Assembly: GCA_010094025.1 (NCBI GenBank)
Contig: ML991816.1
Coordinates: 124,001-188,000 of the forward strand
Length of the DNA: 64,000 nucleotides
Direction of reading: 5' to 3'
DNA from: Viridothelium virens
Taxonomy: Eukaryota > Ascomycota > Dothideomycetes > Trypetheliales > Trypetheliaceae
The position numbers and the translations under genes are program-made. Below, one piece after another: positions 18,586 through 64,000 of the stretch. How positions within the stretch are numbered: the first letter of the stretch is position 1; each line of letters starts with the position of its first letter. The notes below the pieces were generated by a model. It was not told the origin of the DNA and made no database searches. It worked only from the letters and a program-made list of their open reading frames with translations.

Positions 18586-21218
18586 ATGGTATGATGAACT
18601 AAACACCTCATCAATCGAGCATCGATGCCCTTCACCTTACGAACTCAACTGACTATCTGATTGTGATCTGCGCAGGCTGAGCGCGACCTCAAAACACTGG
18701 ATGAAACACCCCAACACTCCAGCTCGAGGGAGACCCTGGCGGACTTACCGACGAATGTTCCCGCGCGAAAGGGATCTTCAATCTCCAGTTCAAGAGCAAA
18801 GAGACCAAAGCAGCGTATAGAGGAGAAGACGAAGCAGTCTTCGCGACCCGCGTCACCGACTTGGGAGGACATTGATGAAGATCGTCCACGACGGAAGGGT
18901 AAACCAACTCCGACCCAGAGAGCAAACACCAGTTCGAGGCGCATCAAGACAATATCATCAAGTCAATTAGGAACTGTTCGGGAGGAGGGTGCAGGAAGTG
19001 GTCAAGACGTCTTAGGGTTCTTTCCAAAGCTCAGCAGAATACTAGAGAACAAGGAGAACTCGTCTAGCAGGAGAAGGTCATCAGGATCGGTCACCTCTGG
19101 GTCAGAAAGAAATCTCTATTCGGTTCGATCAAATCGGAGTGGTTCAATTGAAGCGAACGACGTGGCAGAGCGCAGAGCAACTCGACACAGACATCGTTCA
19201 CAGCAGCGAAGGGCGGAGCTGTTGATGAACCCCTCGATGCTTTCCGTTGTCTCCGGCGCAACAAACTCCTCCGGAACCTCGAGTGGCAGCGGCTCGACTA
19301 TCACACAGAGATCATACGACAAGTCTAGTAGTGAGAGGCGGCGGCGTTCTGGTGAACATAACAGACATTCTACGCGCAGATGTGAACGCAGCGTTAGTCC
19401 TTCAGCAATGGGAAGTCGGACCAATCATGCTATGGACCGATCGAACGTTTTCGCCTTCATGGTCCCTGATGTCCCAGAGGAAAACAACATTGAGGCGTCC
19501 CACACGAGCTCTTCTTCTTCAGCATACGCAGGCTCAGATGCAGGGTCTTCGCACACGCCGGCCACGTCTGTAACATCTTCATCCCCTTCACCATCAATGC
19601 ATCGCACGCGGCTGATTCGCGATGGATGGAATGTCCACGAAAAAGCTAGATCAGACGATACTGCTTCTGTCCGCGGCAGCAGTTCTGAAAGAAGTCTGAG
19701 GAGTCGACGCGGCGGCCAACGCCAGTCCAACACTCGAGATGGGATAGACACTGATCGAGGCTCGTCGGGGAGAAGTGAGCAACGCGAAGGAATGGACGCT
19801 CCATTGACAGAAGATTACCAGTATGAAGACAGGGCTGACTACCTGAGACATCAATACGACGAGGCTCTAAGACATCAACGCCAACATCAGGCTGCTATGC
19901 AGGCCTACTATCAACATGCCGAGTCCTTCCCTCGGTTTCCTGCACAGAGATCAAATGACGAGTATAGCGGTGCAGCAGCTGATTATTACTATCCGTCAGC
20001 ATCCGCTCCCGAAACACCGTCAAATCAGCCCAAGCAAGTGATGCAATACGCTCGTAGTATCCCAGAACAACAACAGGCTCGAGCTCATAGCAATCAATCT
20101 CTCACCAAATCACCCGAGCCAAGCAAGACTATCCTTGTCGGATACGAAGCACTCGCTGCCAAGCTCTCGTCAACTGACCAGTCGGATCCCAACGGACCAC
20201 TACGGCCAATATACCGCAAGTTCGAACATCTAAACCATCGTATTCTTCTCTACCTCCAAGACGAGGTTGCCGAGCTCGAAGATGAGCTCCGCCGACTCGA
20301 CGAAAGCATCGCCCAAGCCTCCGCCAGGGCCGCCGGAAAAGAAAAGTCCCTCCCGGCATCCCGCCGAGCCGAAGCCAAAGCCGGAACCGAAGCCCACCAT
20401 CGCCGTGTCGAACTCCTGGGTCGGATCTTCATGAAGATTGGACAGTACAGTAAGTCAGCCCGCCTGCCGGACACAGAAACGATCCCTTGACAAAACCACC
20501 ACCCCCGGCTTCTTCATCCCACGCAGACATCCTATCGATTGCACCGCTGACACGAGCCACCATTACAGACCAAGCCTTCTCCTCCTACCACACCCTCCTC
20601 TCCTCCTCCACCCCCGCCGCTGCCCCCGACATCGCGACCTACGAGTCCTACCTCACAAGTCAGAAACCGCTCGTCGATGCCGAATCGCGCTTCCTCAGCG
20701 CGCCAGCAGACCTCATCACGCCGCTCTCACACGCCAGCGCCAGCGCCCGTCGCCACCATGGCTCTACAACAACGACGATGACGACGATGACGACGACGGC
20801 AGACACGTCGCTGGGGGACGTGCGGTGGGCGATCTGGGGCCTCCCGCTCGCGCTCGCGGTGCCCCTCCTCGCGTTCCGCGTCGTCAGCGGGCTGTGGGGC
20901 CGCATGATGGTGCTGGTGCTTGTGGTGGCTGCGGGGGCGGGCGTGGTGTCGCAGCACGCGCAGGGGGTCCAGACAGGGAAGAGGAGGGAGGGGAGACATG
21001 GGACGCACGAGGAGGAGGGGGAAGGAGGAGGGCTGGTGGTGGAGGGGTGGCTGCGGGAGTGGGGGTTTGGCGTCGCGGTGTACGTATTGTCTTGGCTTTC
21101 TTCTTCTGGATTGGGGAGATGTTCGCGTGTGATAAAAGAAAGAAAGGGAAATGAAGGGGCTAATTTGGGTGCGAATAGGTATTTTGCGACGATGGCGGCG
21201 TTGGCGGCGGCTCTATGA
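18586..21218 (+). CDS. DUF6594-family membrane protein with long disordered N-terminus
   Basis: Predicted exons: 18586-18588, 18676-20449, 20569-21079 and 21179-21218 (775 aa). The first coding exon would be just ATG, with a GTATGA donor, joining GCT GAG to give MAERDLKTLDETPQ; the in-frame sequence upstream of 18676 offers no other ATG. The first ~330 residues are Ser/Arg-rich and disordered. The DUF6594 part starts near LVGYEALAAKL and includes PIYRKFEHLNHRILLYLQDE, an acidic helix, and YNQAFSSYHTLL formed across intron 2. Two to three membrane segments close the protein (IWGLPLALAVPLLAF, MMVLVLVVAAGAGVV, FGVAVYFATMAALAAAL). The last intron (99 nt, GTACGT donor) is stop-free and a multiple of three. 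DUF6594 proteins are abundant in moulds and have no assigned function. Confidence 0.85.
20760..20811 (+). repeat. Imperfect ACGATG/ACGACG coding microsatellite
   Basis: A run of ACG and ATG triplets inside exon 3 of the DUF6594 gene encodes a Thr/Met-rich loop (TTTTMTTMTTT). It sits at the point where the plus strand turns from C-rich to G-rich. Confidence 0.7.
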
Positions 21219-23395
21219 TCGGATTGGGAGGCTGGTCGCCTGCTTGCTTGCCTGTTTGCCTCGAACTGGGGGAAGGATTATGGGGGATTGGGGCAATGGG
21301 TTCGGAGTTGGAACCGAAGCGCGCGTGGATTGTTTCGGTTGGAAGAGGAAACATCTGGGGTGTGCTTAATTTGCCAGTTCCTTGATGATGACGAGCGAAG
21401 GCGCTAGGGGCGTTGGTGGTGGTGATAAGGATTCGCACGAGGGAACGTCTGTCTGTTGTCCTTCTAAGACTAGCTAATTTGCATGGAGTACGGAGCATCA
21501 GGTAGGATACTGTAGTCCCGCTCGGCTTCGGCCGTGGGGATTGAGAGCAAAGATTGATTTGCGGGCATCTATTAGTGTTGCATCTGTTGCACGTTTCGTC
21601 TCCGAGCGGGTTTCAAGATCTTATTTAGACCTCCTGTACCCTTGCAACCATGCGTCAAGCGCTTGTCCGGAGTCAGTGTTGGATCTCGTGGCTGCGATAA
21701 TAAGGAGGTTCATATTTGAATAAGGGTAAAAATTACGATTGTGAGGCTTCATGAAAATAGTAAGATGTAGTATTCGAGCAGGTAGCTCTGGATCCAGACG
21801 GCGCCTGGAGGCCTTCCGGACTATAGATTTCAACATGAGCCTCGTATTGCTCGGCACACTTTGTGTCTTGGCAAATTCAAATGGTCAAAGTCAGGCCTGG
21901 CAGTTTAGTCGAACGCGACATCATCGACATCACCGTACATAACGGCAGTTTGACAATTTTGCGCATCCCAATTTCTGTAGTTTGAGATCCAAGTCAATCA
22001 CAATTCTTTCAACCCGTACCCCAGCCCTGACGTGCCTGACTAGAGATGCAAGAAACACAGTGTAAGCGCCAATGCCGCAGCCGCAGGGTGGCCAGCGCTG
22101 TGCTCTTGCGTTATATCAATGCCCTGGACTATGTTTGATCGACGGATCGCTCGCTGCCGAACGCCTCAGCCAAATTGGAATTTCGGCCATCCGTAAGGTG
22201 CGTAAGATAGGATCGGCGCTTAGATAGTAATGTAAGTTCGGAACATGGAAACGAGGTGGACTGGGCCCTCGGATGGCGTCTGTTCCTGAATCGAGATCTC
22301 CTTCGGGGTAATGGCTCGGGCGACGGAAGCTGGATTTGGTGGGTGAGGGCAGGAATGGTGGGATGGATGTGCAACTCCGTAGTGATGGGCTAGAAGCAAG
22401 TGTCAGGGGTAGCCGAATAGAAGCACCGAAGCTTGATGAGCTATCGTGATGGCGTTAGAGCTGCGTCAAACGTAAATTTAGCCTGTCCGTTACCCCCCAT
22501 GGTATCGGTAAGTTGTGACTCCTGCCAGTTGTGAGGCTGAAGTATAGCCGCAGACTCCTTTTGCGCACTGCAAAGTACAGTACGCCTCGTAATGTCCATT
22601 GGCATCTCTGGAATCTTTCTCGTCCGGCCAGCCAACAAGCAACGACGGAGTACTCAGTGGCAGCGTCTCTCGGCCTGAAACCGCCCGTCCAGGACCCAGC
22701 ACCGCGCATACTGCCGCTTTCTCCTGACCCACTCGCTTGTCTTCCCCTCCCACTCTAACGTCCCACCTCCAGAGCCATCTATCATCTCCAACTTCTTCCG
22801 TACACAAAGACGGTGCTCTCCAAACCTCATTGTCACTGCACATTGCCGCCGCCAACCTTATCTGCTGGTGTCCTTACCCGCTCAACCAATCTCCGCTTTT
22901 CGCCCGCAGCCTGCTGGCGCCAATACCGCAATATCGCATTACCGCAATCCGCCGAGGAATGCGCACTCGTTTCAGACTCGCTGCTCATCATTACGAAGGA
23001 ATTTGCCGCATCTCACAGGCGCCTTCGATGTGTTCGCAGCTGCCTGCTGGCCTCCACCTATCTTGATACTCTCCCTTCGCTGGCCGAGGATATTCCACAT
23101 CGAGGCGCATCGCAAGAGCGCAAAATCCGAAACTATCAACAAGCTCTTGTCGCACAACGTCTTCTATCATCTCCGAATCCGTCTGAAACTTTAATCGAAG
23201 ATTAGGGGCTTGAGCGCGCTTGAGTCACAGTTACACGGTTTCTGGATTCTATCTCCCGCATTGATTTTCTTTGTTTCGCGCGCTTGAGATACCGCGTGGG
23301 AAACACAACTTCTCCTTGCATTCGGACCTAACTCCATCGCCGCGTGGAAAGATCTTGGCCTTCTTACCGCTGCGAATCTCGTCAGTGCAGCAACA
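21219..23395. other. Intergenic, about 2.2 kb
   Basis: No gene recognised on either strand. The last ~700 bp are pyrimidine-rich (for example 22690-22880) and probably hold the RasGAP promoter and leader. The ten-mer CGCGCTTGAG occurs twice, near 23215 and 23279. Confidence 0.5.
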
Positions 23396-26889: not shown

Positions 26890-27603
26890 ATGTCCTCATC
26901 CAACACCATCCCCATTCCTAAGCGGAAGAAGCCGCAACCGTCGACGCCTCCACATACGTCCAGTCCGGGTAATTACTCCTACGCTTCTTCATCCTCATCT
27001 TCGACACCATCGACATACAGCCATGCAGAGAGCTCCTTGAGTGCATCGTATACCCCTTCTACTGTCACAACCTCGTCGCCGGCGAGGCAACACAGTTATG
27101 ATAGGCGTCCTTCGTTATTAGGTACGCAATAATGAGACGACACAGCCTGAGCAGCCCTTCCGCCTGAGGTACACAGCAGGCTAACATATCCTAGGTGCTT
27201 CGTTATCAAAATCAGAGCATACTGTCATCAACATCGGTGGTCCCGAAAACCCAAGGCTTGTGAGCTTCACCATTACCCCTCTCTCCCTCTCCCCCACCGT
27301 ACTTCTCTAAAGACACGGAAATCCAACTGACCACATGGCAAACGTGCAGATTACATGCGTAAAAACATCTCAAGGCTTCGACTGGAATCTAGGTATGCTT
27401 TATGCTTCCAGTCATCTGTCTATATTCAAGAGCCAACCCCCCTAAGCGCTCTCACTCACAGAACTACACGACTGACCACTACAGACATATTCCTCCCATC
27501 CTACGCCTCCGATCACGACTCGAGCGAGCTGGAAAGGAAGCAAGACCCAGTGGATGAGATTGTGCTAACGGACGAGGAGGCGGCGGCTATCTTCCCGCGG
27601 TAA
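26890..27603 (+). CDS. Small conserved fungal protein of unknown function
   Basis: Four exons: 26890-27121, 27195-27259, 27350-27392 and 27485-27603 (152 aa). The longer frame upstream lacks an ATG, so 26890 (MSSSNTIPIPKRKK) is chosen. The first half is Ser/Thr-rich; the second half is ordered-looking and assembled from three short exons: HTVINIGGPENPRLITCVKTSQGFDW, then IFLPSYASDHD and an acidic tail EIVLTDEEAAAIFP. The introns (73, 90 and 92 nt) are longer than average here. The pattern of a Gly-Gly-Pro-Glu-Asn motif followed by CVKTSQGFDWN and a DEEAA tail looks like a conserved mould protein I have seen only as hypothetical. I assign no function. Confidence 0.82.
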
Positions 27604-28711
27604 CTACTCTGGAGACCATGTTGCGGGGGATGATAACACGTGCGGCCGTCGAGATCCTTCCAGAGTCGATTTGCGAATGTTAAGGGCCATGGACGTGCAA
27701 GATGGTGATCTGAGGAGCATGGAGGAGTCGTCTATTTATGTGTTTCGGGCGTTTTAAGGTAGGGGGAGATCTCGGCGGTCTCGGCTCATGTAGCTATGGA
27801 TTACGGTCACGTTTACACCGTGTGAATATGGTTTCGGTAATGAAATATCTGAATCAATGCAGAACCCAAGTCAACGATCCTTATTTTGTCGCTGCATGTG
27901 AAATACCTAGTGCTTGGCGAATTGTAGGAGTCTCTCGTGAGTTCGTCTCGTCCCGTTTTGGTCTTGTATCTCGTTAGCGATAGAAGGACCCTCTTTCGGA
28001 GCGTACTCTCCCGGAGCGAGATGATGCTGAGTGACCGAATACCTCGCTACGACCTGCCGGCTCCGGGCGGTGCTCGGCAAAAATTTCTATCTTGTACAAC
28101 TTTCCTTATACAGCAGACTCACAACCATCTTATCTTTCTCCTTTCTCTAAGATCGTCAGTCGTTATCATCATTTAGGTTTCTGCAAGGGTCTTCGCGATC
28201 CAATGCTATGGTATCACTTGTGTTCAAAGGCTCTTCCGAATTGCACGGCTGCAAGTTACCTTGCCCGTGGCAAATCATTGGTTCGTTGAACTCCTGAAGA
28301 GAGCCTGGAAAAAAAAAAGTGCGTCGTCTTTTAGCCTTGACTGCAAGCCACAATGTCTCTCATTTTGCCGATATGGCTACTGAATCGTATCTTGACATGA
28401 TAGCTTTATCAATACACTAACGTTCTGGGTATTTCTAACAATTAAGGAAAGCTCCTCCTCCTTGGGTAAGCACCCCGATCTCCTGGTCTTGCGGCGCTCC
28501 ACCCTTGGGTAGGTAGTTTGAGGAGCCCTCCACTCCTAGGAATAGAAGTGATAATTTATAATTCCATAATCGAGTCAGCGTAAATAGATCATCATTACTT
28601 CAAAGAATTATATACAGGAAAGGGAGAGGATTTCATATACAAGAATTAAATCATATCCAAAAAACTGAGGCGTCGTAAGTATGTGCAGTTCCGAGCTCAT
28701 CAAGACAACGT
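27604..28711. other. Convergent intergenic region, 1.1 kb
   Basis: Lies between two 3' ends. It is G-rich on the plus strand at 27610-27780, and holds a short A-run near 28310. No gene recognised. Confidence 0.5.
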
Positions 28712-32070: not shown

Positions 32071-35038
32071 ATGGCCGACAAATACGAGATGCTCGAGGAG
32101 CTTGGGAGTCAGTCTACTTTTTTGCAATCGCAGACTCAATCATGCTAATAATCACGAAGGTGGAAGCTTCGGAGTCGTCTACAAGGCCATCGAGAAAGAG
32201 ACTGGCGAGATCGTGGCGATCAAACACGTGTGTAGACATTCATGACTTTATTCGATCAATTCTAAGTATTCTACAGATCGACCTCGAAGGCAGCGACGAT
32301 GATATCCGAGAGATTCAGCAGGAAATATCGCTACTTAGCACCTGTGCTAGTCCATTCGTAACTCATTACAAGACAAGCTTCATTCGAGGTGTGAAGCTCT
32401 GGATCGTTATGGAATACCTGGGTGGAGGTTCGTGCTTGGATTTGGTATGGTCCCGCCACTTTCAATGAAGGCAAAACAGAGGGCTTACAGAGTCGCCAGC
32501 TCAAACCTGGTCCTTTCCCAGAAGCTCATATTGCGATTGTTTGTCGGGAGCTACTGCTTGGCCTTGATTACCTACACCAGACTGGAAAGATTCACCGAGA
32601 CATAAAAGCAGCCAATGTCCTTCTCGCACAGTCAGGAAAAGTCAAGATAGCAGATTTCGGCGTCGCCGCTCAGCTCACTAATATCAAATCTCAACGCATC
32701 ACGTTCGTCGGGACACCCTTTTGGATGGCACCTGAAGTTATTCAAGAATCAGGCTATGATTTCAAGGCAGATATATGGAGCTTAGGGATAACGGTGATGG
32801 AGTTGGCAAGGGGTGAGCCACCCCATGCGGATACGCATCCAATGAAGGTTCTCTTCTTGATACCCAAGGCACCGGCTCCACGGCTGGAAGGAGGGCCATG
32901 GAGCAAAGACTTTCGAGATTTTGTTGCCCAATGTTTAGTGAAGGATCCGGATAGAAGACCGACTGCAAGAGAGCTACTACAGCACCGATTCATCAGAAAA
33001 GCAGGTAAACTTGAGGCCTTAAGAGAATTGATCGAGAGGAAACAGGTATTTGATGGGAAAGGGCAAGATTCGGTACATCCGAAGTACTACGAGGAAACAT
33101 TGTGAGTTAAGGGCACAAGGATGCGAATACAGGATAAGTGCTGACAAGGTGTTAAGGAAAACCATGTCTCCCGAAGCTCAGGATGACGAGTGGGTCTTTG
33201 ATACCGTTAGACCCGGGACTGCTGCAGCCAAGTACAAAACGCAGAAGCGAAGAAAACATTCTCGCGTTCTCTCTGCATCTAGCCAGGTCGGTGACAATGC
33301 ACATGACATAGGACCCGTCATGGAGAAATTGGATTTGAATGCCGCGCCATTGAATGTCGAAAGTCCGTCTCCAGTCAAAAGAAAGCCTGTGCCCAAGGCT
33401 GAAAACCAGACTCCTCGAAGGACATCAGCAGCAGCAACCGCAATCCGGAGATCATCAGCAACACCAGTAACTTCTTCAAATGCGGCACAGCAAGATACGC
33501 CCACCATGAGAAGGAATAGCGCTCCAAAGCAACCGTTGGCTCTTGACATGTCATTTGGGAACTCCACTTCAACAGTTCGACAATTCCGCCGAGTATCTCA
33601 GATTCACAGTCCGGTGGAAGAAGAACCCCCCCGAACTCCGGAAAAGCGCGGTATCAACGAGATGTCGGATAATGCGAAGTCACACCGGCTTTCATGTGCA
33701 AGCACTATGGTGGATATCGGCAACTATGAGAACGAGCAGGCAGACGGGAAAGAAAATCAAGCTGGACTTAAAGAGTCACTCCCACCGCCGTCACAAAGCT
33801 CTCTAAGTTCCCAGATGCCTCCGCCTTCTCCCTCCAAGCTTGCACTTCTGGGCAATCGCGCTTACAAGCGTACTATTGCCCCAGCACTGCAAGATGTTGT
33901 GGCGTTAGTAAATCAAAAGATGAACACAGGTCCTACATCAAAGCTTCAGTCTCAGCTCGAAGTTGTCACACGCTTGGCAGATGTTTGGAATGAGTTCAAC
34001 GTCATTGATCCAGAAACAGAACTTCTCCTGCTAAAAGCGGTCCTCGATCGAATCCAGGGCGAAAAGAAGCTAGCGACGACTCTCGGACTGATACCAAAGC
34101 ATACCGCAACGCCAGCGCCGACCGACACCGCCCGCCGTCAAAACCACACGTCCAGGCCATCCGACGTCTTCTCCGACGACGCTGCATCGGTCCTTATGGC
34201 ATCAGCCGTCACCGCGAGAACCTCCTTCACCCCTTCAACCACCTACCGCGAAGATGACGACGACGCCAGCACTCCCTCCCCAACCAAAAAACCCGTCCAC
34301 CCCTCCACCTCTTCCATCCACTCGTCCATGGACCCACCCAAAACTCCCTCTAGATCCCCCACCAAGTCCAAACCCCCACAAACCCCAATCACGCGCGACC
34401 TGCCCCCCACCGTCATCGACCTCAGCACCTCGCCCTCAAAACCCGACTCCCCAACCAAACCCGACGCTTCCTCTCCCTCGAAGCGCCACTCTGCCGTCTC
34501 CGCCGCCGTCACCGCCAGCCGCGTCTCGACTCCCGCCAAACTCGTCCTCGCGCAGAATAACCCGCACCTGCTGCAGCACCATCATCAGCGGCGGCAGTCG
34601 GCCATCGTGGTGGCGCCGGCGCCGGATCCCGTACCCGCGCCTGCGCCGCTGAGCCCGCGGAAGGTACGCCGGAGCGACGTGGGTGCTGCGTCGTCGGCGC
34701 GTGCAGAGGCGGAGGCGAAGGCGAGGGATGAGGCGTTGGGTGGGAGTGGGAGGGGAGCGGGGGGGAGCCCTGCGAAGCATGTGCCGGAGAAGGCGATGGT
34801 GGAGGAGAAAGAGGAGCGGCAGCAGCGTGGGAGCGAGATGGAGGCTGGGGGAGTCAGATTGGTGCACGAGGGAAAGGGTGGGCGGGGTAGAGCGGCTGTG
34901 AGGAGCTCGATGGAGGCGGAGATGAGGGAGAAGTTTCCCGCGCAGGTGGTGCCGGGGTTGGAGCATGTCAAGGCGTTGGGCGATGTACTGTATGGGAGGT
35001 GGGCCGATGGGTTGAAGGAAAGGTGGGGGGTTGCGTGA
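32071..35038 (+). CDS. sepL: GCK-III/Ste20-like septation kinase (SepL/Sid1-type)
   Basis: Five exons: 32071-32107, 32160-32227, 32277-32444, 32500-33101 and 33157-35038 (918 aa). Residues 1-270 are a complete kinase domain: [11 protein letters not shown] (P-loop, completed by splicing), VAIKH (catalytic Lys), [18 protein letters not shown] and [29 protein letters not shown] and [13 protein letters not shown] match the Sid1/SepL branch, which acts in the septation initiation network upstream of Sid2-type kinases. After the kinase comes [21 protein letters not shown] and a long disordered Ser/Pro/Thr tail, with a helical island near [20 protein letters not shown] and another at the C-terminus ([20 protein letters not shown]). 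The tail makes it longer than I expect, and its last 300 codons follow a strong C-rich then G-rich base bias. Confidence 0.94.
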
Positions 35039-44311: not shown

Positions 44312-44332
44312 TATGCCATCCATGCCCAGCTA
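44312..44332 (+). promoter_or_regulatory. Small upstream ORF in the Gid7 leader
   Basis: An ATG opens a six-codon frame (MPSMPS, stop) about 390 nt before the Gid7 start, and is the only ATG I find between about 44270 and the main start. It could tune translation, or lie in an unrecognised leader intron that starts at its GTATGC. Confidence 0.4.
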
Positions 44333-46918: not shown

Positions 46919-47832
46919 CCCTCCCCCTCCGCAATGCACATGACTGCCACAACAATGAATTTGATTTATCGCATCGGGTCACATATACATAGATCTAACT
47001 GCGCCACGAGTTTCGGCATTAGACTGACGATTTACGCAAGGGATTAATGAGAGCCGAGGTGCGGCCACGTTTGCGCACACGCACACCAGGCGCAATGCTT
47101 TCGGGGAGGCGTCAGTAGTTGAGCGGCCCTTTGTCGACTAGATGGTCAACCCATATTCTGGCGTTTCCAACGGGATGACTGAGATCTGAATTCCCTTTTC
47201 CGGTGTTGGTAATTATGGAGCGTAGCCAGTTGTTTGTCCCAAACAGTGAGCTCCTAGATCTTCTTCAACGACGCTCAACTTGAGATAGTAGGGGCGCAAT
47301 TGGGCCAGCGAAGTACAGTTCTTGCCGTACCAGCCTGCGGGTTCGCATAAGAGAAGGTTGGACGGAGATGGAGTCACAGGGTTGCAGGCGCAAAGACGGC
47401 ATTATCGCGCGTGCACAAAGGTAGAGCTGTAAATAGAATATAACCCAGACCACCCGAGCCACCCAAGCGGATTCATAGTAGGGGCAAGGTCCATTTCACT
47501 GGATGATTTCTCACACACATCGGGCAGAGAATGCTATGTTGGACAAGAATGAAGAGTTCAACCATTCATTCCAGCTAGCTAGTATGCAGAAAACTGTTGT
47601 AAGACTCAAAATTTACCAACCCGGGAAATGCAGTCTGATGATCAAACCATACGCCAGAACCAATGGGAGATAGCACGCGCTTCCCTGCCAGGAGGTAGGA
47701 AAATGCATCTGTACTAAGGAAGAACCATTAGCTCTTACCACGCGAGCAAATGTTCACACCTATTGCCTCCACTCCGCTCTATTAGACAATCCACCTCCCA
47801 TCATTCGCTCCAAGTTCTCACCCATCACCCTC
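46919..47832. other. Convergent intergenic region, 914 bp
   Basis: Between two 3' ends. No gene, repeat or RNA seen. The last 80 bp are extremely C-rich on the plus strand. Confidence 0.5.
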
Positions 47833-50800
47833 CTACCCCTTCCTCAACGGATGTGCCCCACCTCTACTCCCCCCTCTCTCCATAGCATGCCCGCCAGCAC
47901 CCTGCAAGCCACCCCCCGGCGCAGGACTCACCCCACGACTTCCAGCCACCGCCGCCGCAATCCCCACCCTCCTCTCCACCACCGGCCCCAGCCTTGGACT
48001 CCCCATATTCGGCGCCGCGCTCCCCGCCCTCGTCACCACCTGCGCCCTTCCACTCGCCCGCTGCTCCCTCGCAACACGCAGCTCCTCCTCCTTCCTCCGC
48101 AGCAAGGCCTCGCGCTCCCTCAGCTGCACCTTCAGCCGCTCGTTCTCGCTCGCCGTCGCCGCCGTCTGTGCACCCACCGCCGTCTGCCGCAGTGCCACCG
48201 CCTGGCCGTCAGCGCGCTGTTCCAGGCGCACGTTCGTGGCGCGGAGCTCGGCGACTTCGGTGCCGAGTTCGGCTGCCGCCGACGAGGCCGCTTGGTATTG
48301 CGTTCGGGTGTAGGCGAGCTCGGCGGTTTGCGTCTCGAGGCGTTTGGAGGAGGTGGCGGCGGCGGATTCGGCGGCGCGGAGGGAGGCGCGCAGGGTTTCG
48401 AAGTCGGCGATGGCGGGGGGGGCGGAGGTCAGGAGGGTGTTCCGCGCGGATTCGAGGTCGGTGCGGAGGGTGTTGCGTTCGTCGCGGAGGGAGGCGAGGG
48501 TTTGGGTTTGGGATTCGAGGCGGCGTTCGGCCTTGTCGAGCGCTTGTTTGGTGGTGTCGAGTTGGTAGTAGGCCTGAGTGAGCTCGGTGCGTTGGTCCTC
48601 GTAGCGCAGTTGAAGGCCTTCCAGGGCTTTGTGGAGCTCGTTGGCGCGAGAATGGAGCTGGCGGAGCTCGGTGCGAACTTCGAGGATGTTGATGGCATCG
48701 TCTTCTGTTAAGACTTGATGCTGTATAACTTCCTGTTTCTGCGTAGCGGGGGTTTTAGGTTGCTCGGCAGAATCAGTGATGTGGGTCGTCGAGACTTCGG
48801 ATGCATTCACGATCAGGGAATCGGAGTGCTCTGGCTCCTTCCTTGCAGACACGCGTGCTCGCTTCGACGAGCTTGCGAATTGTTCGTCGGCGGGATCCTA
48901 GCTTTCATTAGTTATTTTCCGAATCTCCGAAGATACGTCCACTCACCATCGATCGTTTCAAGTATGGAGGATCTCTTGGCTTTACATGGCAAGGTTCTGT
49001 CTCCGTTGACGATTGCTGACTATTGAAGACTTCTTCCAATTTAGGCGATCTTTCAAGTGTAGGCCAAGACGTTCCATTTTCCGGGTCCTTTAGGAAGCTG
49101 ACAGTATCCTCTGCAAGTGCACTTAGCTGCGCAGCTATCTTTTCTTTCACGTTCGGTGGAAGAGCTCGAGGATAATGATCTGGAACGATACCACATTCGC
49201 CTTGAAATTGAGACACAGCTTGAACGAGTGTTTGCAGACGCTCAGTCTCATCCATGTCTAATTTGATCCAACGCTCAAATTGTTCGATGGAGTTTGCGAT
49301 GAGTAGGCGCAAAGACGGTGGTAGATTTCCATTTCCATTGGAAGCAGCAAAATTCTTTTTCATAAAACCGGGGTAAAAAGTGTTCTCCAATCCAATAACA
49401 AGCGAAATCTGCTCAGGTAGGCTCTCCGGTGGCGACTTGGTTGAGTAAATTCTCGCAGTAAGAGCGGCGTTGGCACCCTCACCAAGACTGACCGGCTCGT
49501 TACCTGCTAGGTCGCTGTACGTTCTAAAACCCCAACCTTTGAAGACTTTGACCACTACATCATATGGGTTTCCAGGCTTTACGAAAATGGCAATCTCTTT
49601 CGTAGACATAGCCAATTTCTCCACTAACAGCGCAAGGAATTTGAACTTGAAAGAACAGGTTTCGGCCCAGATTGCATGCATCTGATCTGTACCAGCCTCC
49701 TGAGAGAAATTTTCCCGGTTCTCCAAGTCCAGATGCAATAGGATATCATGAAGTAGGTCCAGCCTCGACACCACTTGCTCCCGCGTCCCATTGTGAGGAT
49801 TTTCCACAAAGGCTGTAAATAGGCGAGGTGGATATTCCGTCGACGTCTTGACTCGAATGCGATAACTGTCACGCTGACTACCACCCATTGGAAGAACGAG
49901 CACCAGCTCTTCGCCTGAATGGGGTTGCGTAGGTCGATGAGTGTCCTTGTCGATAAGGCCTTTCCGGAGATTTTGGGGCTCGTCAGTATCTTCATCAATA
50001 ATCGTTTCTAGCTGAGAAGAAGCCAGAACTCTTGGATCGCTGTCCACTTGTCCATGACTTTCAGATTGTGTTGTGCTGCCATCTGCACCTGGCTGGACAT
50101 CAGAAAACTGCTCTGCTAGTTGGCCAGCGCCATTCGTTCCATCAGGAAGCAACGTTGCTAGCATTGTTGACCGGGTAGCACTTGGCTCTGGAGCCTTTGG
50201 CTCCGGTCCCGAATGTGGAATCGCGGAAGGAGATCTAGTGCCTCCTTCTGGGGATGCTGTGTTTGCCTTTGATGATCTCCTTCTGCGCTCCCGAAATCTG
50301 AATTGAGGCTGAGGAAGATTTGATGTTGCCTTATTACGCATTTCCGAGAGCCTTGCGTCAAGATCGGATGCATTCAAGCTTTCTGAAGCGCCAGTCTCCG
50401 ACATCGTGGCCAGATCTGAAGGTATCTCGAGTCGCGGAAGCTTATTCGCAGTAACAGAACGGGTAGATTGAGAGGGGGGTGATGGTAGAGATAGCAGGAG
50501 TTGGTTCACTAGCGACGATTTCCGAGATTCCGATGATACTTCGGCGGCGGGCTTATCAGTCCGAGAAAGCTTGGCACTCGTATGGCTTCGCTCAGAGCCA
50601 GAATGACTTTCTGGACTGGGCAGGTCCGGAGGTTGAGATGACTCAAGAGAGTTACCAGTCTCGATCCGGTTTTCGCGTGTTTGAGCAGACACCGTCGCTA
50701 AGCCCTCTGGAGAACTCTTCGACGTCGGAATAAACGCAAAATCTGAAATTTGCGTGCCGGATCCACGATTTGGAGTTTCAGAAAGCTGAGGTTTCTCGGC

Positions 50801-52630
50801 TATAATATTGTAGCCTTCGGTTGGCGATGATAGCGTCTCCTGTCCAGAGGCTTCTTGTTTATCGCTCTCGGTAGACTGGGTCTTTTCCGCTTCTTCTGTG
50901 GGAGGTGGTGAAGAAGCGGAGGATGTTGAATGCTTCGCGCTAGGCAATGGTTGAGCGAAAGGCGAAAGCTCGTCAATGACGTCGCTCTCGGGTCCAGAGG
51001 GTGAGGAGACTGAATGTTGGATGGGCGTATATGAGTCACGTTGGGAGGGGTTTTGTGTTTGCTATCAATCTTGTTAGCAAAAAGTCGCTCGAAAGTGAAC
51101 TACAAGTGAACAGGGAAGAGAAGGTGGGGTTTGACTAGTGATGCAGAAGCCAATGAAATGATCGCACATTTAGGCCTTGCGAGATTTTGCATCAATGTAA
51201 ATATACTGGTCTTTCCACGCATAGAAGCAATGATAAGTGTGAAATACCTCTATTGGGCTGCTTTCTGGGATATCTTGGGTTTGGTCCTGCGTCACACTTC
51301 CAGAGGTGGTGCTAGTTGAAGTGTGGCTTGTAGCCAGACTTTCGGGAGGCACAAAAGTCTCGCTATTGTCTACAATTTGTGAATCGGGCACAATCTTGAC
51401 CACGGAACTAGATTTAGCATCCACAGAAGAAGTCTGTTGTGCGTGAGTGTGGTCCGAACTGGTGTTTTCGACGTGACTCTCTGGGGTAGTCTGGGTGCAG
51501 CCGGTAACTGGAACGTAACTCTCGTTGGAGGGCTTCGAGTTCGTGGTAGGCTCAGAGGTAATGCTGTCTCGAGAGGGCTCTTGTGTAACCTCTGCTGGTG
51601 AATATGACACAGCTGTATGGATAGTGGTACGACCGGTAGACTGTTGCGGAGATTCTTGGATTAATTGCTGAACGGAGCAATCTGAAGCGTGCTCTTGGAG
51701 GGCGTCCTTTGCAGCCGCTCGAGCAGGGTTTGAGGTTTGGGATTCTTGAGCAAGTTCCTGGAAAGTATTCTCGGTGGAGCTTTGATCGCAACCGACTACT
51801 GCTTGTGATGAGCTATTAGCCAACCTGACTATCTGGTCGTTAGTTGGATTTTCTCCCTCGGTTAGAGGCTGGACTTGAGAGGCAACAGTCGAATCCGTTG
51901 CCGTCTCCTGAGTTGCAGGGGCTGAAAAGGAAGTATACTCCTCGTAATTGATGGACTTCTGCGCGAGGACTATTTCCGGGTCCTGCGGCGTTGCTTGGCT
52001 TACCAGGTCTTTTCCCTTTGGTTCGTCTAGTATTTCGAAGTTCGACAGTCCCAAGTCTGAGTCTGAAGAGTCCTTTTCAGACTTTGACGTATATGAAGGG
52101 CTCTGAGTAAGAGTTGGAGAAGCTTGGAATGGGTCGGACCACTGTGCTGAGTCTTCCTTTTGGCACGGTGTCGGGCTGTCTTCAGACGTATTTCCCACGT
52201 CACCGTTAGCGGAGCTGTGGACGACCGGTAACAAGTTCTCGGCTGCTGGGGAACTTTCGACAATCTTTCGACGTTTGTCTCTTCTTCCACGCACTGAAAC
52301 TGGTGTACTCTCTTCGTATGGTACCTGGGACTCGCTCAACCTCTTCCTTGCAGTCTTGACTTTGTCGACTTGCTGCTGCTTTGCCTGATTTTGCTTCCAG
52401 TGTTCCAGGGCCTCCTCGTTAAGGTTCTTCTTCGGCTCCCAGGTTGGAGAGTATTTCTCGCCAGTGTCCGGATTATCTTCCCACTGCACCAAGTAGCGAC
52501 CGTTCCTATATTTGAGAACGTCGCGAATTTCAAAGTAAAGTGAGGAAGGAGTCTTCCGTTTCTTAGCGGAGGATTCGATTGCAAATGTATCTTCCGAACG
52601 GCGTTTACGCTTCGCAGGCGTGTTCGCCAT
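47833..52630 (-). CDS. Chromodomain protein with HDA2/3-like domain (HDA complex subunit)
   Basis: Three exons: 52630-51248, 51061-48947 and 48897-47833 (about 1520 aa). The N-terminus has a basic patch (PAKRKRRSED) and a chromodomain at residues ~28-80 (YFEIRDVLKYRNGRYLVQWED, then YSPTWEPKKNL). A long disordered Ser/Thr/Gln-rich stretch follows. Near residue 850-1130 is the class II histone deacetylase complex subunit 2/3 fold: ELVLVLPMGGSQRD, DLLHDILLHLDL, TCSFKFKFLALLVEKLAM, ISLVIGLENTFYPGF. Exon 3 is a coiled-coil of about 220 residues with a Gly-rich tail. Yeast Hda2/Hda3 hold the Hda1 deacetylase; a reader of methylated H3K9 joined to this fold recalls the CDP-2 protein of the Neurospora HCHC silencing complex, but that equation is inference. 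The first intron (186 nt) is long; both joins restore good frames. Confidence 0.88.
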
Positions 52631-55232: not shown

Positions 55233-56039
55233 CAGCAAAGTTCGGCGTTGGAGGAAAACTTGAGGCGTTGGTATCGAAGCTATTTTCGGACAATTGGATA
55301 TGTAATGGGTAAGGTAGATTAGCTTTCCCGCAATATCAGGGTTGACCGAGCCGAGGATAAGGATTGATTGAATTCTGTCCGTGACGTCGTCCTGCGTGAC
55401 TAAGTGCCCAATCCATTACGAATAATTAAGATGACGCAACAGGCTCGTATTTTATTAGGGGATGCATTAAGAAATGTCGGATGAGTATGGTTGGTGCTGT
55501 AAAAACCAATTTGTCTATATCGTAGCCTAGGAGCTCCTCAGCAACATGAAGTCAAGGATCGTGTCCATAGAGCATCTTGGGCCTCCATCAACATTTTTCT
55601 CAATGATCAAGTATACGAAGAAGGGAAGAAGTAATTTCTTCAGTCTAAAACTCAAAAGGTATTATCGCGAAAACCCGATAAGGCAAAGGATGCAAGGCTC
55701 ACAAACTTCCTTCTTTTAGGCGCCGAAGGGTTGGTCCAGTTAGTCCGGACAAAAATCAGTATTAGCGATTTATCTGATTATCCTAATTTAGCTTTATACG
55801 ATTTAGGAAATTCCCAATAAGATTTTGAGCTTTTCGCGCCCCTTACGGCCCGGGTGGTACAGTGCTCCACACATTTAATCCTACTGCAGCCATACAATCG
55901 AGATACTTACTTGCTTGTAGCATGTCTTTCTTTACTAGTTTTCCGATCTTTACTCCGTACTTCTCATCCCTTTCCACTTTTCAGAGCTGACTTTTGAATC
56001 TCAATTCTTTCCTGTTTTTTCTTAGCCAGGTTTATCCTG
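55233..56039. other. Intergenic, about 800 bp, AT-rich in part
   Basis: The stretch 55,760-55,830 is AT-rich. No gene or repeat recognised. Confidence 0.5.
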
Positions 56040-56636
56040 TCAATGTCCTCCAGCACTTTTCTATTCCAACATCATACATATTGCCAGCTAGATCGAACTT
56101 TGCATAAGCCACATGTCCCCTGTAACTTCGTTCCTCCCTTGAAATTCCCCTCACGGCCTCCACTCCATCCAAGTGCCCACACTCCAGCAACTTCTCTATC
56201 GATGGATCTGCCATCTCCCCACCCCACCCCACCCCCACGCAATCCCCTCATACCAGCTCACTCTCTTCCCATGCGCGACTCCGAGCCATATCCGCCCCAC
56301 GCGAGGGGGATGTAGTAGTAGATGTGTCCGATCCCAGCGGCTTGGGCGGCAGAGATGATGTTGCAGCGTCAGCGAATGCGCTGCGCGTTCTCATACGTGT
56401 TGGCGCTAATGAAGAGTAGGTTATGGACACCTATGAAGACTGTCGCGAGCTGCGTGGGGGAGTTGTAGTCCGTGTGGATGAGCAGGATGTCCTATGTGGT
56501 GAAGTGGGCGCGGGCGGCTTCATGGGTGGAGGCGGCGGTGATGGTGGTTCGGGGGAGAGAGTTGGTGAGGAGATGGGAGAGGACGCCGGTGCTGAGGGCC
56601 GCTGGAGGCGCCGAGAAGGAGGTGGTTGGGGCTCAT
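56040..56636 (-). pseudogene. Decayed NmrA-like NAD(P)-binding protein
   Basis: From an ATG at 56636 the minus strand gives MSPNHLLLGASSG, then after a one-or-two-base frame change STGVLSHLLTNSLPRTTIT, DYNSPTQLATVFIGVHNLLF, SANTYENAQRIR, RCNIISAAQAAGIGHIYYY and PLAWGGYGSE. This is the classic NmrA/HSCARG-type sequence (Rossmann start, IxADYNxPxTL, GVDNLLFISS, NVIxAAxxAGVKHIYYSSLA). Three in-frame stops are seen (after FTT, after AQRIR and after MGRE) and at least one more frame change before SIEKLLECG and a garbled REG segment near 56120. The remainder fades out around 56040. It is a host gene, not the true nmrA, which is intact at 39949-41369. No clear C-to-T bias dominates the visible changes. 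Confidence 0.85.
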
Positions 56637-57328
56637 TGATCGAGAAGCTTTGCAGTGTTTAACAGCTTTCAAATTTCAAGGAATAAAATGCAAAGCTATT
56701 TGAATTGCCCATCTTTAACGGAGAATGGTGAATTTGAAGAGCTGAATAGATGATATACTTGAGACTCAGCCACTGGAGTCCTCCCCTCACTATGTCTTTC
56801 CTTAGAGTGTTCTTAGAAGACTGGAGACTCGTCCTGTGCGTGGATGAGTAGAGACTTAGTAGGGACGCGCTTGATGCCCTACAGGATTTAGCTGTCAGCG
56901 TTTAGCCATTCGTGATTAGACCTGCTGATTAATTACACCGCAGATTGACATCGACGTAAAAAAAAAACTGGGTTCCAAACGAAGGGAATATGGGAATCGA
57001 TCGAAAAATGAATCAATTGCAACAGGACTAGTGTCCGATTACATGAGAGATTTCCGACCTAGCAATCCCAAGTCCGCAGAAATCACAGCTTCATCTAGAG
57101 AATCGTCAAATAAATCGACAAGCTTGCATCCCACCAAAACTCTTTCCAGCAATTGCGTGCCTCGAGTCAAAAACGCCAATCCATCATGTGCCCTCTTAAC
57201 CTCGCCTCCTCCCTTGGAGGAACGCTCAAGTGCTCCCGATGCCAATAAACGCCTTGCTAGTCAGAAAGGCATAGTACAACAAGCGTGGAAACTTTCACTT
57301 CAAGAAACACGGGAGCAAGAGAACGATT
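56637..57328. other. Intergenic, about 690 bp
   Basis: 3' flank of INP1 and upstream flank of the decayed gene. A nine- to ten-base A-run lies near 56958. Open frames at 57031-57369 are not recognisable. Confidence 0.5.
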
Positions 57329-61131: not shown

Positions 61132-62787
61132 TCAATGTTTGGCACTCGAAGCAACCTCTCTCAGCGCTCCTACCAATTCCTTCGTTGGCGATTCTGGCGC
61201 TTCCGAGACTCGCCAGGCGACGTAGCCATCTGGTCTCACCAACGACGCACCGGAAGGTCCCACGCCGAAAGCGTCGTGGAAAGCCGCCCGACTAGAAAAT
61301 TCGACGTCCTGTCCCACCCTCACGAAAGCGACCTTGCTTCGAATTGCCAGCTCTACGTCTGCCGCTGCGGCTGCCCAGCGCTCGTCCTCGGCAATGAGAG
61401 TCCAGTTGAACTTGAAGAGATCAATGGACGACGTACTTTGCCCGTTCTGGGTGATCTTCAGATGTGGTGTACGAGTGCCGGGCTGACCCTTCCAGTAGTC
61501 GGGGCGCTGTGCTACAGGAAGATCGTCTCCAACTCCGAGCACAGCGCTTGATCTGTACAGCTGACCCAGTTCGATCGCGCTGTCCTCCAAGATGGGAGAT
61601 TTCTTCCCGTCCGTATCCGCATAATCGCGACGCGCGAAGTGTTGCTGGTATCGCAGCAGGGCAACAGGACGTCTCTCTGCATCGTAAGTGTCGAGTAGAG
61701 CGGGTCTAGAGACTTTGGAGATTACGGAGGCGAGCTTCCAAGCGAGGTTGTGGGCATCATGAATTCCGGTGTTAACACCGTAGCCGCCACGACTGGGAGG
61801 AAGCGAATGCGCGGCATCACCAGCGAGGAAGATGCGGCCAATATGGAATTTCTCGGCGACCAGGCCGTTGATCTCCCACCGTCCCGTGGTGATGATTTCG
61901 ATTGGGATGTCAGACCGTCCGATGGCAGTTTCGATGCATTTCCTCAGTTCCCTCTCGTTGACGTCCTCATCTTCTTCCTCATCGTCGAACATCAACACCC
62001 ATCTCCCATCCCCATAAGTCGTAAAAAAGATGTTCTGAAACTCTCTCAGCCGATCGATGGTGAACTGACTGATCCCGTTCTCAAGATACTGCTGCAGGTC
62101 CGCGCGGAAAAGCACACTGCGCTTCACCGAAAGACGCTCGCGTCCCGTCCTCTGAATCCCTAGGATCTCCCTTACCTGACTCCGCCCACCATCCGCCGCA
62201 ACCATATACTGCGCACGAATACTGTACTCCCTCCCCTCGGCATCCACCACCTTCGCCATCACCCCCTCCCCATCCTGCTCAAACCCCAACAACTTCGTCC
62301 CAAATCTCACACTCGCACCCAACTCCACCGCCCTCCGCCTCAAAATCGGCTCCAACACATCCTGCGCAACCGCCGCCCCCTTCGTCGGCGAAAACTCCTC
62401 TCCTCCTCCCTCTGCCTCCCCTCCCTCCTTCCCCTTCTCCACCTCCTTCTTCTCCCTCTCCCTCACCTCCTTCGGCGTCCAGCTCGTCTCCTCATACCAT
62501 TTCCCCGCGAGACTTTCGATCCGCGCCCGTCGCACCTCATGGAACACTTTTTCCGCGGCTGGAATCTGATCGGCGATGCCGGCCGCGCCGAAGATCTCCA
62601 TGGTGCGCGGCGTGTAGCCGATGGCGCGCGGGTGCAGGGAGTGGCCGGAGTGGCGCTCGATGAGGATGGGTTGGATGGGGGTGGGGGAGTGGGCGGACGC
62701 GAGGAACATGGCGGTGGAGAGGCCGACGAGGGAGCCGCCGATGATGAGGACGGGGGTTTGTTCGGGGGAAGGGGGCTGCGGTGGCAT
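61132..62787 (-). CDS. FAD-dependent aromatic-ring monooxygenase
   Basis: A single-exon frame of 551 aa. VLIIGGSLVGLSTAMFL is the FAD ADP-binding fold (with GGS in place of GGG, common in this branch). ERHSGHSLHPRAIGYTPRTMEIF is typical of the PheA/TfdB phenol-hydroxylase type. VAADGGRSQVRE is the DG motif that touches both FAD and NADPH, and FLAGDAAHSLPPSRGGYGVNTGIHDAHNLAWKL is the GD motif. No signal peptide or membrane segment. It should hydroxylate an aromatic compound using NAD(P)H and oxygen; the substrate is unknown. Between WTPKEVRE and GAAVAQDVLEP lies an unusual Lys/Glu/Gly-rich insert (about residues 108-138) coded by DNA with almost no G on the plus strand. Confidence 0.92.
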   Translation of the reverse strand: MPPQPPSPEQTPVLIIGGSLVGLSTAMFLASAHSPTPIQPILIERHSGHSLHPRAIGYTPRTMEIFGAAGIADQIPAAEKVFHEVRRARIESLAGKWYEETSWTPKEVREREKKEVEKGKEGGEAEGGGEEFSPTKGAAVAQDVLEPILRRRAVELGASVRFGTKLLGFEQDGEGVMAKVVDAEGREYSIRAQYMVAADGGRSQVREILGIQRTGRERLSVKRSVLFRADLQQYLENGISQFTIDRLREFQNIFFTTYGDGRWVLMFDDEEEDEDVNERELRKCIETAIGRSDIPIEIITTGRWEINGLVAEKFHIGRIFLAGDAAHSLPPSRGGYGVNTGIHDAHNLAWKLASVISKVSRPALLDTYDAERRPVALLRYQQHFARRDYADTDGKKSPILEDSAIELGQLYRSSAVLGVGDDLPVAQRPDYWKGQPGTRTPHLKITQNGQSTSSIDLFKFNWTLIAEDERWAAAAADVELAIRSKVAFVRVGQDVEFSSRAAFHDAFGVGPSGASLVRPDGYVAWRVSEAPESPTKELVGALREVASSAKH

Positions 62788-64000
62788 TTTTGGGGTGGGA
62801 GGCTGTGAGGTTTTGATGGGGGACCTTGGGGTGATTAAGATGATGGAGATGATTGAGATAATAAGAGGCTTTTGTTTTCGAATTAATGAAATACGACTAT
62901 GAGATTTTGGCTAGTGTTTTGGTAAAGCAAGGGCGTGTGGTCAATGAGTAGACGAAAACATGGTTCTGATTTGAGTCTATCTTCTCCAACAAGTCCTAGG
63001 CCTTATTATTATACTTGAAGTCGGCCGGCAGACGGATTGTATAAAGCGCACGGCACCGTTCGGGCCCGACTATTGCGCCCCGACTCTCCCGAATTTGAGG
63101 TAGTTGTTCATGATGTTTTCCCAACTTACACTGAGTCACCTTAGGTCACCTACTTAGATTGATCCTTCGAGCTGGCTAGTTCTCAGATTCTGATTATCCC
63201 GATGAGATGCGAAAGCGTCTACCGTCACCACCCTTCCGGACGATCGGGGTGGCATCTACGCGTCCAGGAGCAAAAGATAGAATCCTTTGAGTCAGAGACG
63301 GTTTGCAGGCGTTGTACTATGTCCAATAGCAGATGGATTTCTTTTTGACTCTTCTGATCTGCGAAAGTAGGTAGAGGCAGGAGGAGCAATGATGAGGCCG
63401 TCGTGGTCTTTACACAATTTTGATAGGTTCATCACTACTAAAATTGTTACCGAATGTCTTTATGTTGTGGAGAAAGATCCTGAGGTGCATTTAAGGTTAT
63501 ATTTGTTTTTTGGTGTACTGCATCAGTTCCGCTGCTTGCTTACTGCCCAGCCTAGCATCGCTCTTTGACCACTTCGCAGATGCCTCCTCATATATTTGAT
63601 AGAACATTACTCCTCTCGTTCTTTACGTCAGGGTTCCCGGGATTAAATCGATAAGGTATTTAGGATCGTTGCCGCTAGGCATGGGCAGTGAAACGCGAGT
63701 TCTCGGTTCCGCTCGTTTCAAAACTCCTGCAATTTAGCAAGTCTGCTTGGCCGATCGATTGCGAGAATTTGGTCACAACCACTCATTTCAACGCAGAGAG
63801 AGGTTTCTGGAAGTCTCTTTTGCCAACTCAGGGTTCTTAGCTACAAGTCAACGGAGTGTCGTCTTCGACAATGTTCAACATTGTCTGGTTTTTTCCGACT
63901 TAGCAGTCATCTGCGAAGAGACGCTGAAGAATCAATATAGCACTCGGTCGAGGGCGTCGCCCTAGAGGTAAGCCATCCCTGAAGCGCATTCAAAACAAAA
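62788..64000. other. Terminal intergenic region, 1.2 kb
   Basis: Monooxygenase promoter and further sequence to the window edge. The plus-strand frame at 63747-63965 is not recognisable. No repeat or RNA gene seen. Confidence 0.5.

What the first reader, a model, noticed from the sequence alone, without database searches (positions are those of the whole stretch)
20400..62790. Regularly spaced C-rich to G-rich strand switches, always in the same direction
Hand counts on 60-base rows of the plus strand: 20581-20640 has 37 C and 6 G, 21001-21060 has 6 C and 37 G; 34261-34320 33 C/4 G then 34741-34800 9 C/33 G; 40801-40860 29 C/5 G then 41221-41280 2 C/39 G; 47821-47880 34 C/4 G then 48361-48420 12 C/34 G; 56221-56280 33 C/5 G then 56521-56580 4 C/34 G; 62401-62460 37 C/1 G then 62641-62700 8 C/35 G. 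A weaker switch is seen near 27.5 kb. The crossing points are about 20.8, (27.5), 34.6, 41.1, 48.2, 56.4 and 62.6 kb, so 6-8 kb apart. Host genes are plus, plus, plus, minus, minus (pseudogene) and minus, so gene orientation does not explain the constant C-to-G direction. C-to-G is the polarity expected either side of a bidirectional replication start, where the leading strand gathers G; the spacing is closer than usual for fungal origins. Other ideas: recombination-linked biased repair, or a structural DNA signal. The left 19 kb shows no equally sharp case.
Basis: seen in the sequence. Interest (0 to 1): 0.75.

Follow-up and report, generated by a model that had tools for sequence, protein, structure and literature searches.

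The report
Symmetric C-to-G GC peaks in fungal genes
Six short GC-rich spots in a stretch of fungal DNA each flip sharply from C-rich to G-rich in the same mirror-symmetric way, even at silent sites, which looks like the footprint of a DNA copying or repair event that keeps happening at fixed points near gene ends.

Summary
All 12 hand counts are exact. Six strong C-to-G switches (change points 20806, 34587, 41092, 48231, 56300, 62554) stand apart, with no G-to-C switch of equal strength. The same places are the six highest 400-bp GC peaks. The effect acts on DNA: fourfold sites go from 64% C / 14% G to 71% G / 17% C, against 20-28% of each base elsewhere, in genes of both orientations, and it continues in introns, flanks and a gene remnant. 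Pooled skew fades by about 800 bp.

Two reader arguments fail. A C-to-G switch is its own reverse complement, so constant direction says nothing about gene orientation. Fork-direction skew does not fit the short arms, and in ascomycete yeasts its sign would be opposite (PMC3459929). Regular spacing is only suggestive.

Best reading (inferred, 0.4): footprints of position-stable double-strand-break hotspots near gene ends, with GC-biased repair; the sign is unexplained. Replication initiation and gene-end transcription are live rivals. Three scans found no fungal relatives. New variant of known skew jumps and GC peaks.

The parts
20206..21406 (.). Site 1: C-to-G switch, change point 20806, GC peak 0.708 at 20878; in the 3' part of a plus-strand DUF6594 gene, 411 bp before the stop
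33987..35187 (.). Site 2: change point 34587, GC peak 0.713 at 34589; in the 3' part of a plus-strand ORF next to a protein-kinase ORF, 451 bp before the stop
40492..41692 (.). Site 3: change point 41092, GC peak 0.665 at 41118; last exon of a plus-strand NmrA-family gene, 275 bp before the stop
47631..48831 (.). Site 4: change point 48231, GC peak 0.728 at 48088; 3' part of a minus-strand coiled-coil ORF, probably the last exon of an HDA2/3-like gene, 398 bp before the stop
55700..56900 (.). Site 5: change point 56300, GC peak 0.623 at 56413; in the remnant of a minus-strand NmrA-like gene (weak Pfam match, E 0.0022, below the curated cut-off)
61954..63154 (.). Site 6: change point 62554, GC peak 0.665 at 62555; 233 bp inside the 5' end of a minus-strand FAD-dependent monooxygenase gene
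27121..27921 (.). Weak candidate C-to-G switch, change point 27521, no GC peak; not counted among the six
19162..21217 (+). Host gene of site 1 (DUF6594, PF20237); intron 20450-20526 inferred from splice signals and frame, a second one near 21081-21179 possible; 5' end not determined
32422..35038 (+). Host gene of site 2: kinase ORF 32422-33105 and ORF 33050-35038, probably one gene (junction not verified)
39949..41367 (+). Host gene of site 3 (NmrA, PF05368, E 5.4e-77 when the two exons are joined)
47833..50947 (-). Host gene of site 4: HDA2-3-like ORF (E 5.3e-6, 26.2 bits, just under the curated cut-off of 27) probably joined to a coiled-coil ORF; the intron near 48900-48947 is inferred from splice signals only
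61132..62787 (-). Host gene of site 6 (FAD_binding_3, PF01494); about 20 extra, low-complexity residues within residues 104-131 relative to GrhO5 and RubL

Best explanation
Each site is the long-term mutation and repair footprint of a DNA transaction that starts again and again at one fixed point and runs outward in both directions for roughly half a kilobase. Most likely these are position-stable meiotic (or mitotic) double-strand-break hotspots near gene ends, as expected in organisms without PRDM9 (that fungi lack it is recalled). GC-biased gene conversion raises GC, and strand-asymmetric synthesis or mismatch correction puts C on the strands whose 3' ends point to the break and G on the strands synthesised away from it. 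Shown here: the six footprints, their near two-fold symmetry, GC rise, DNA-level action and place in genes. Inferred: that the transaction is break repair. Not explained: why the asymmetry has this sign.
For: Sharp centre with nearly equal C and G arms (net excess per 300 bp 75-112 for C arms and 78-120 for G arms), in hosts of both strands. Top six GC peaks equal the six sites. Fourfold sites: GC 0.77 and 0.88 with skew -0.65 and +0.62 (single sites -0.22 to -0.86 left, +0.41 to +0.73 right), against background fourfold skew of -0.12 and -0.06; A and T fall along with the minor G or C, so this is GC gain plus asymmetry. Inferred introns, noncoding flanks and a gene remnant show it too. Shared short words at the centres do not exceed the maximum of 100 shuffles, as expected without a sequence-specific factor. 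Near gene ends: 275-451 bp before the stop in four, 233 bp after the start in one. Dog GC peaks of about 1 kb in recombination hotspots after PRDM9 loss are a published parallel (PMC4053742, passages). About 20 extra low-complexity residues in the monooxygenase at site 6 would fit error-prone repair, but were judged only against GrhO5 and RubL.
Against: In human hotspots the mutations flanking breaks remove C and A on the left and G and T on the right (PMC7615360, passages); at equilibrium this would give a G-to-C switch, the opposite sign. GC-biased conversion alone raises G and C equally and gives no skew. In the fungus Zymoseptoria, GC-biased conversion was reported as extremely weak or absent (PMC5844332, passages). 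The arm downstream in the host gene is the stronger one in 4 of 6 at 200 bp, 5 of 6 at 300-500 bp and 6 of 6 at 600 and 800 bp, which hints at a transcription component. No recombination data exist for this unidentified species.
Confidence: 0.4

Rival explanations
1. Replication initiation sites with initiation-coupled mutagenesis: forks or topoisomerase-linked breaks at a fixed start point mutate about 1 kb around it, raising GC and making a C-to-G skew jump, as reported for human constitutive origins.
For: Human constitutive origins have a signature within about 1 kb, an AT-to-CG excess and strand bias that inverts at the origin; modelling it reproduced a local GC rise, skews, CpG islands and G-quadruplexes, and about 80% lie in gene bodies (PMC9645720, passages). 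Here GC rise, C-to-G skew, CpG not depleted at centres and 10 of 11 G3+ quadruplex motifs within 300 bp of the sites match (the quadruplex motifs follow from the composition and are not independent). C. albicans centromeres bind ORC near a C-to-G skew jump in a region of raised GC (PMC2924309, passages).
Against: Pooled skew is gone by about 800 bp instead of declining to about 3.5 kb. Spacing of 6-8 kb is dense against about 40 kb in S. cerevisiae. Fork skew in ascomycete yeasts has the opposite sign.
Confidence: 0.25
2. Gene-end, transcription-linked skew: fungal genes are C-biased at 5' ends and G-biased at 3' ends (McLean and Tirosh 2011), and these are strong examples, perhaps through R-loops before termination.
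For: Four of six centres lie 275-451 bp before a stop codon, and the downstream arm is the stronger one in 6 of 6 at 600 bp. The published pattern extends into UTRs and fourfold sites, and its data set holds many filamentous fungi (PMC3315797, parts 1-3 of 4 read). Among 11 control genes, three reach +0.22, +0.29 and +0.42 in the last 300 bp.
Against: The 11 control genes have a pooled skew of only +0.10 in the last 300 bp, against +0.54 to +0.60 for the four genes with a 3' site, so the effect looks punctate. One site lies at a 5' end and one in a gene remnant. Near-symmetric arms and GC peaks are not predicted by a polar process.
Confidence: 0.2
3. Sites where replication forks converge or stall. 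With converging forks the leading-strand template is G-rich (quadruplex-prone) on both sides; stalling there and gap filling with C would reinforce the pattern. The sign agrees with the C- and A-rich leading strand of ascomycete yeasts.
For: S. cerevisiae termination zones show upward GC- and TA-skew jumps (PMC3459929, passages). The six + strand quadruplex motifs near sites lie on right arms and the four - strand ones on left arms, as the composition requires. T minus A rises from left to right in 5 of 6 sites, once by only 2.
Against: The termination zones of that study span 2-10 kb, far wider than these. The TA signal is not consistent in size or sign. Pure inference otherwise.
Confidence: 0.1
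4. CpG-island-like bidirectional promoters inside genes.
For: GC-rich, CpG observed/expected 0.85-1.18 at centres, C-to-G switch as at mammalian CpG-island promoters (recalled).
Against: Five of six centres sit in coding DNA, four of them near stop codons; background CpG o/e is already 0.77-0.99, and two left arms are low (0.57, 0.53); fungal starts are reported C-biased.
Confidence: 0.03

Closest known systems
GC-skew jumps with raised GC at Candida albicans and C. dubliniensis centromeres and some telomeres (Koren et al. 2010, PMC2924309, passages)
   Same: C-to-G sign (negative to positive), very large amplitude, GC raised along with skew, seen in noncoding and fourfold positions, no conserved primary sequence
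   Different: There centromeric (or telomeric), about 3 kb per side, in intergenic regions, with an AT skew, ORC nearby and a local GC dip at the switch; here six in 42 kb, pooled arms under about 0.8 kb, in genes, GC peak at the switch, TA skew inconclusive. The cause is disputed there too (PMC3459929).
Human constitutive replication origins (Murat et al. 2022, PMC9645720, passages)
   Same: About 1 kb footprint, GC rise, strand bias inverting at the centre, G-quadruplexes, CpG, often in gene bodies
   Different: Different kingdom; no initiation data here; skew here is far stronger than the roughly 9% jump that PMC3459929 calls usual for replication
GC peaks at recombination hotspots of PRDM9-less dogs (PMC4053742, passages)
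   Same: Narrow GC peaks (about 0.5-1 kb)
   Different: The word skew does not occur in that main text
C-biased 5' and G-biased 3' gene ends of fungi (McLean and Tirosh 2011, PMC3315797, parts 1-3 of 4)
   Same: C then G along the coding strand, into UTRs, at fourfold sites
   Different: There a genome average over genes, with GC skew negatively correlated with GC content; here discrete, strong, near-symmetric, with GC peaks
Human meiotic break mutation asymmetry (Hinch et al. 2023, PMC7615360, passages)
   Same: Two-fold symmetric, strand-asymmetric about a break, about 1-2 kb flanks
   Different: Predicted sign is the reverse (G-to-C)

Membership tests
Fork-direction skew jump at a replication origin | Skew persists and declines slowly toward the next fork-merging zone | tested here: not met
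   Pooled net skew per base 0.275, 0.300, 0.102, 0.045, -0.018 in successive 200-bp bins, then between -0.044 and +0.056 without trend to 3.2 kb (se 0.025). Single-site cumulative walks peak 569-1486 bp from the centre
Fork-direction skew jump at a replication origin | Sign given by the species' leading-strand bias (A and C rich in ascomycete yeasts, so G-to-C) | tested here: inconclusive
   All six are C-to-G, against the yeast rule of PMC3459929; the rule for this species is unknown
Constitutive origin with initiation-coupled mutagenesis | About 1 kb GC rise with skew inversion, CpG and G-quadruplexes | tested here: met
Constitutive origin with initiation-coupled mutagenesis | Replication starts or ORC binds at the centre | not testable with these tools
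   No experimental maps; species unidentified; no genome held
Recombination (DSB) hotspot with GC-biased conversion | Local GC peak, also at synonymous and noncoding sites | tested here: met
   Fourfold GC 0.77 and 0.88 at sites against about 0.45 elsewhere; top six GC peaks
Recombination (DSB) hotspot with GC-biased conversion | Raised crossover or conversion rate | not testable with these tools
   No population or tetrad data
Recombination (DSB) hotspot with GC-biased conversion | Mutation asymmetry of the human kind (left loses C and A, right loses G and T) | tested here: not met
   Left is C-rich and G-poor, right the reverse; human rule from PMC7615360
Gene-end transcription skew (McLean and Tirosh) | Coding strand C-biased 5', G-biased 3', as a general gene property | tested here: inconclusive
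   11 control genes +0.10 pooled in the last 300 bp, four genes with a 3' site +0.54 to +0.60, the fifth site gene +0.15
Candida-type centromere skew jump | Single wide jump in an intergenic centromeric region, with AT skew | tested here: not met
   Six in 42 kb, five in coding DNA and one in a gene remnant; T-A inconclusive
Sequence-specific binding element | Shared motif at the centres | tested here: not met
   Words of 6-8 bases shared by all six or by five never exceed the maximum of 100 shuffles; highest case 8 six-mers within 200 bp (mean 3.8, max 8)

The most novel reading that the evidence does not exclude
The averaged C-at-5'-end, G-at-3'-end skew of fungal genes is not a property of transcription. 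It is the sum of discrete, two-fold symmetric hotspots like these six, each a fixed point near a gene end where repeated DNA synthesis or repair drives every base toward C on one side and G on the other, strongly enough to rewrite protein sequence. It may be self-reinforcing, because the G-rich arms form quadruplexes that attract the next event. A fungal genome would then carry a readable map of its long-lived break or fork sites.
Probability: 0.3. Interest if true: 0.85.

Novelty: new variant of a known kind. Interest (0 to 1): 0.65.

Why it matters
If general, base composition alone would map fixed recombination or replication points at about 100-bp resolution in filamentous fungi. It would make a published open question (mutational or adaptive origin of the 5'/3' skew of fungal genes, PMC3315797) directly testable, and show a DNA-level process strong enough to change encoded proteins: C arms rich in Pro, Ser and Thr, G arms in Gly, Glu and Arg.

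Tried and rejected
Codon or protein selection: rejected as sole cause. Fourfold sites, inferred introns, noncoding flanks and a gene remnant show the switch. In the three of five coding sites tested (2, 4, 6), permuting synonymous codons cut the switch from 0.663, 0.597 and 0.699 to means of 0.367, 0.192 and 0.330 (maxima of 1000 runs 0.480, 0.340, 0.438). A third to just over half of the signal therefore sits in amino-acid choice as well.

Shared centre motif: none beyond shuffles. Shared repeat or mobile element: rejected; the site regions (1000 bases each) do not match each other, save one 52-base low-complexity match between sites 3 and 6. Paralogue comparison to get substitution directions: the NmrA protein gave no match to the NmrA-like remnant.

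Fungal relatives: one scan of genome contigs found one weak bacterial kinase match (31% identity, L001); two scans of viral contigs found nothing. Literature: ten searches (five of the listings, showed only 10-20 of 26-177 papers) listed no title or abstract start that describes punctate C-to-G GC peaks in filamentous fungal nuclear genes. The library is open-access only, so this is weak evidence of absence. PMC7403616 uses 'GC skew' for GC enrichment, not strand skew, and was set aside. tRNA search with the bacterial setting found none.
Full report
What the window is. No genome is held for it. Pfam matches (DUF6594, NmrA, Inp1, RasGAP, DUF4048, a protein kinase, a near-threshold HDA2-3) and short GT-AG introns read by eye point to nuclear DNA of a filamentous ascomycete; this assignment is inference. 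Overall GC is 0.51 with no net G/C bias (C 16203, G 16215).

The observation. All 12 hand counts are exact. Maximum-likelihood change points are 20806, 34587, 41092, 48231, 56300 and 62554. Their switch scores stand apart from the rest (0.249-0.342, next 0.141) and none of 1000 block shuffles at each of four block sizes gave six. The same six places are the six highest GC peaks of the window, a second measure that does not depend on strand. Pooled over the six (rough centres), C reaches 0.49 on the left with G down to 0.105, and G reaches 0.52 on the right with C down to 0.127, with GC 0.66-0.69 at the centre. TA skew is inconclusive: T minus A is higher right than left in 5 of 6, once by only 2, with left values from -59 to +57.

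It acts on DNA. In the five coding sites pooled, fourfold-degenerate positions within 450 bp hold C 223 and G 48 of 351 on the left, and G 239 and C 56 of 337 on the right. Site 1 left is the weakest (C 31, G 20 of 66). Fourfold positions of ten coding regions elsewhere in the window (two of them, the site 2 and site 6 ORFs, taken only beyond 700 bp from their centres; the HDA2-3 ORF begins 677 bp from site 4) hold 20-28% of each base. The two minus-strand genes behave like the three plus-strand genes. Noncoding parts follow: inferred introns -0.42, +0.52 (this intron is uncertain) and -0.68, stretches after the stop codons +0.40, +0.41, +0.40 and -0.52 (plus-strand reading), upstream of the monooxygenase +0.68, and the remnant -0.58 and +0.44. 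Codon positions 1 and 2 are pulled as well (skew -0.28 and -0.46 left, +0.32 and +0.34 right; background on the coding strand about +0.13 and -0.20), so proteins are reshaped. The monooxygenase carries about 20 extra low-complexity residues within residues 104-131 relative to GrhO5 and RubL; fungal relatives could not be compared.

Shape and place. A C-to-G switch is its own reverse complement, so constant direction is what any two-fold symmetric process gives; it is no evidence for or against gene orientation. Pooled arms fade to background by about 800 bp, although the cumulative walks of single sites reach their maxima 569-1486 bp from the centre. On the coding strand the G arm is by necessity the downstream arm; it is the stronger arm in 4 of 6 at 200 bp, 5 of 6 at 300-500 bp and 6 of 6 at 600 and 800 bp: a small polar component on a mainly symmetric footprint. 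Four centres lie 411, 451, 275 and 398 bp before a stop codon, one lies 233 bp after a start, and one is in an NmrA-like remnant. Eleven other genes have only +0.10 pooled in their last 300 bp against +0.54, +0.60, +0.54 and +0.54 in the four genes with a 3' site; contrary cases among the controls are an ORF at 10248-11468 without Pfam match (+0.42), the AMP-binding gene (+0.29) and the oxidoreductase (+0.22), and the WD40 gene is strongly C-biased at its start (-0.41). Ten of 11 G3+ quadruplex motifs lie within 300 bp of a site, + strand ones on right arms and - strand ones on left arms, which follows from the composition.

Spacing. With the weak 27.5 kb site the gaps are 6.3-8.1 kb (CV 0.094); without it the six give P 0.03-0.21. 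The 27.5 kb site ranks seventh at 300 and 400 bp flanks but eighth at 200 and 600 and lacks a GC peak, so regularity is not claimed.

Mechanism. Fork-direction skew at origins does not fit the short arms and, by the ascomycete-yeast rule, has the wrong sign (PMC3459929, section 16 read). The same author used the same arm-length argument against a replication origin of the large C. albicans centromere jumps. A local initiation-coupled effect remains possible, since human constitutive origins show a roughly 1-kb GC rise with inverting strand bias (PMC9645720, passages). Break-repair hotspots explain the fixed centre, GC peak, absence of motif and gene-end position, but the published human asymmetry has the reverse sign (PMC7615360, passages) and GC-biased conversion was reported as extremely weak or absent in Zymoseptoria (PMC5844332, passages). 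If repair is the cause, the bias must act in a step other than damage on resected strands, for example on strands made outward from the break or displaced in the D-loop; this step is inferred. Gene-end transcription explains position but not symmetry, GC peaks or punctateness. I put break-repair hotspots first at 0.4, initiation 0.25, transcription 0.2, fork convergence 0.1.

Novelty. Large C-to-G skew jumps with raised GC are known at Candida centromeres (PMC2924309, passages), GC peaks at dog hotspots (PMC4053742, passages) and gene-end skew in fungi (PMC3315797, parts 1-3 of 4). Six compact, near-symmetric jumps inside genes within 42 kb were not found in the ten searches made, several of which listed only part of their hits. 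I call it a new variant of a known kind.

Noticed in passing
38400-39600: Seventh-highest GC peak (0.605 at 38725), between two genes, with a weak and gradual G-to-C change, the opposite polarity to the six sites.
   Followed up: partly
22000-23200: A G-to-C change scoring 0.171 at 22554, the strongest G-to-C change that is not an edge of a site.
   Followed up: no
44000-45200: A C-rich strip (skew -0.25 and -0.34, GC up to 0.57) in the 5' part of a WD40/LisH gene followed by weak G; scores beside the 27.5 kb site.
   Followed up: partly
7600-11600: Mostly T-rich plus strand (AT skew down to -0.37, except 9201-10000) with only mild C bias.
   Followed up: no
43939-43965: Perfect tandem repeat of TGAGGCC, 3.9 copies; the only one of four tandem-repeat rows that does not lie at a site.
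   Followed up: no
56270-56650: NmrA-like gene remnant with in-frame stops, carrying a strong site.
   Followed up: partly
61132-62787: Open monooxygenase gene whose best solved relatives are GrhO5, RubL and RdmE (that these are bacterial is recalled).
   Followed up: no
801-1600: One-sided G-rich stretch (skew +0.41 and +0.27) with GC up to 0.59 and no C arm.
   Followed up: no
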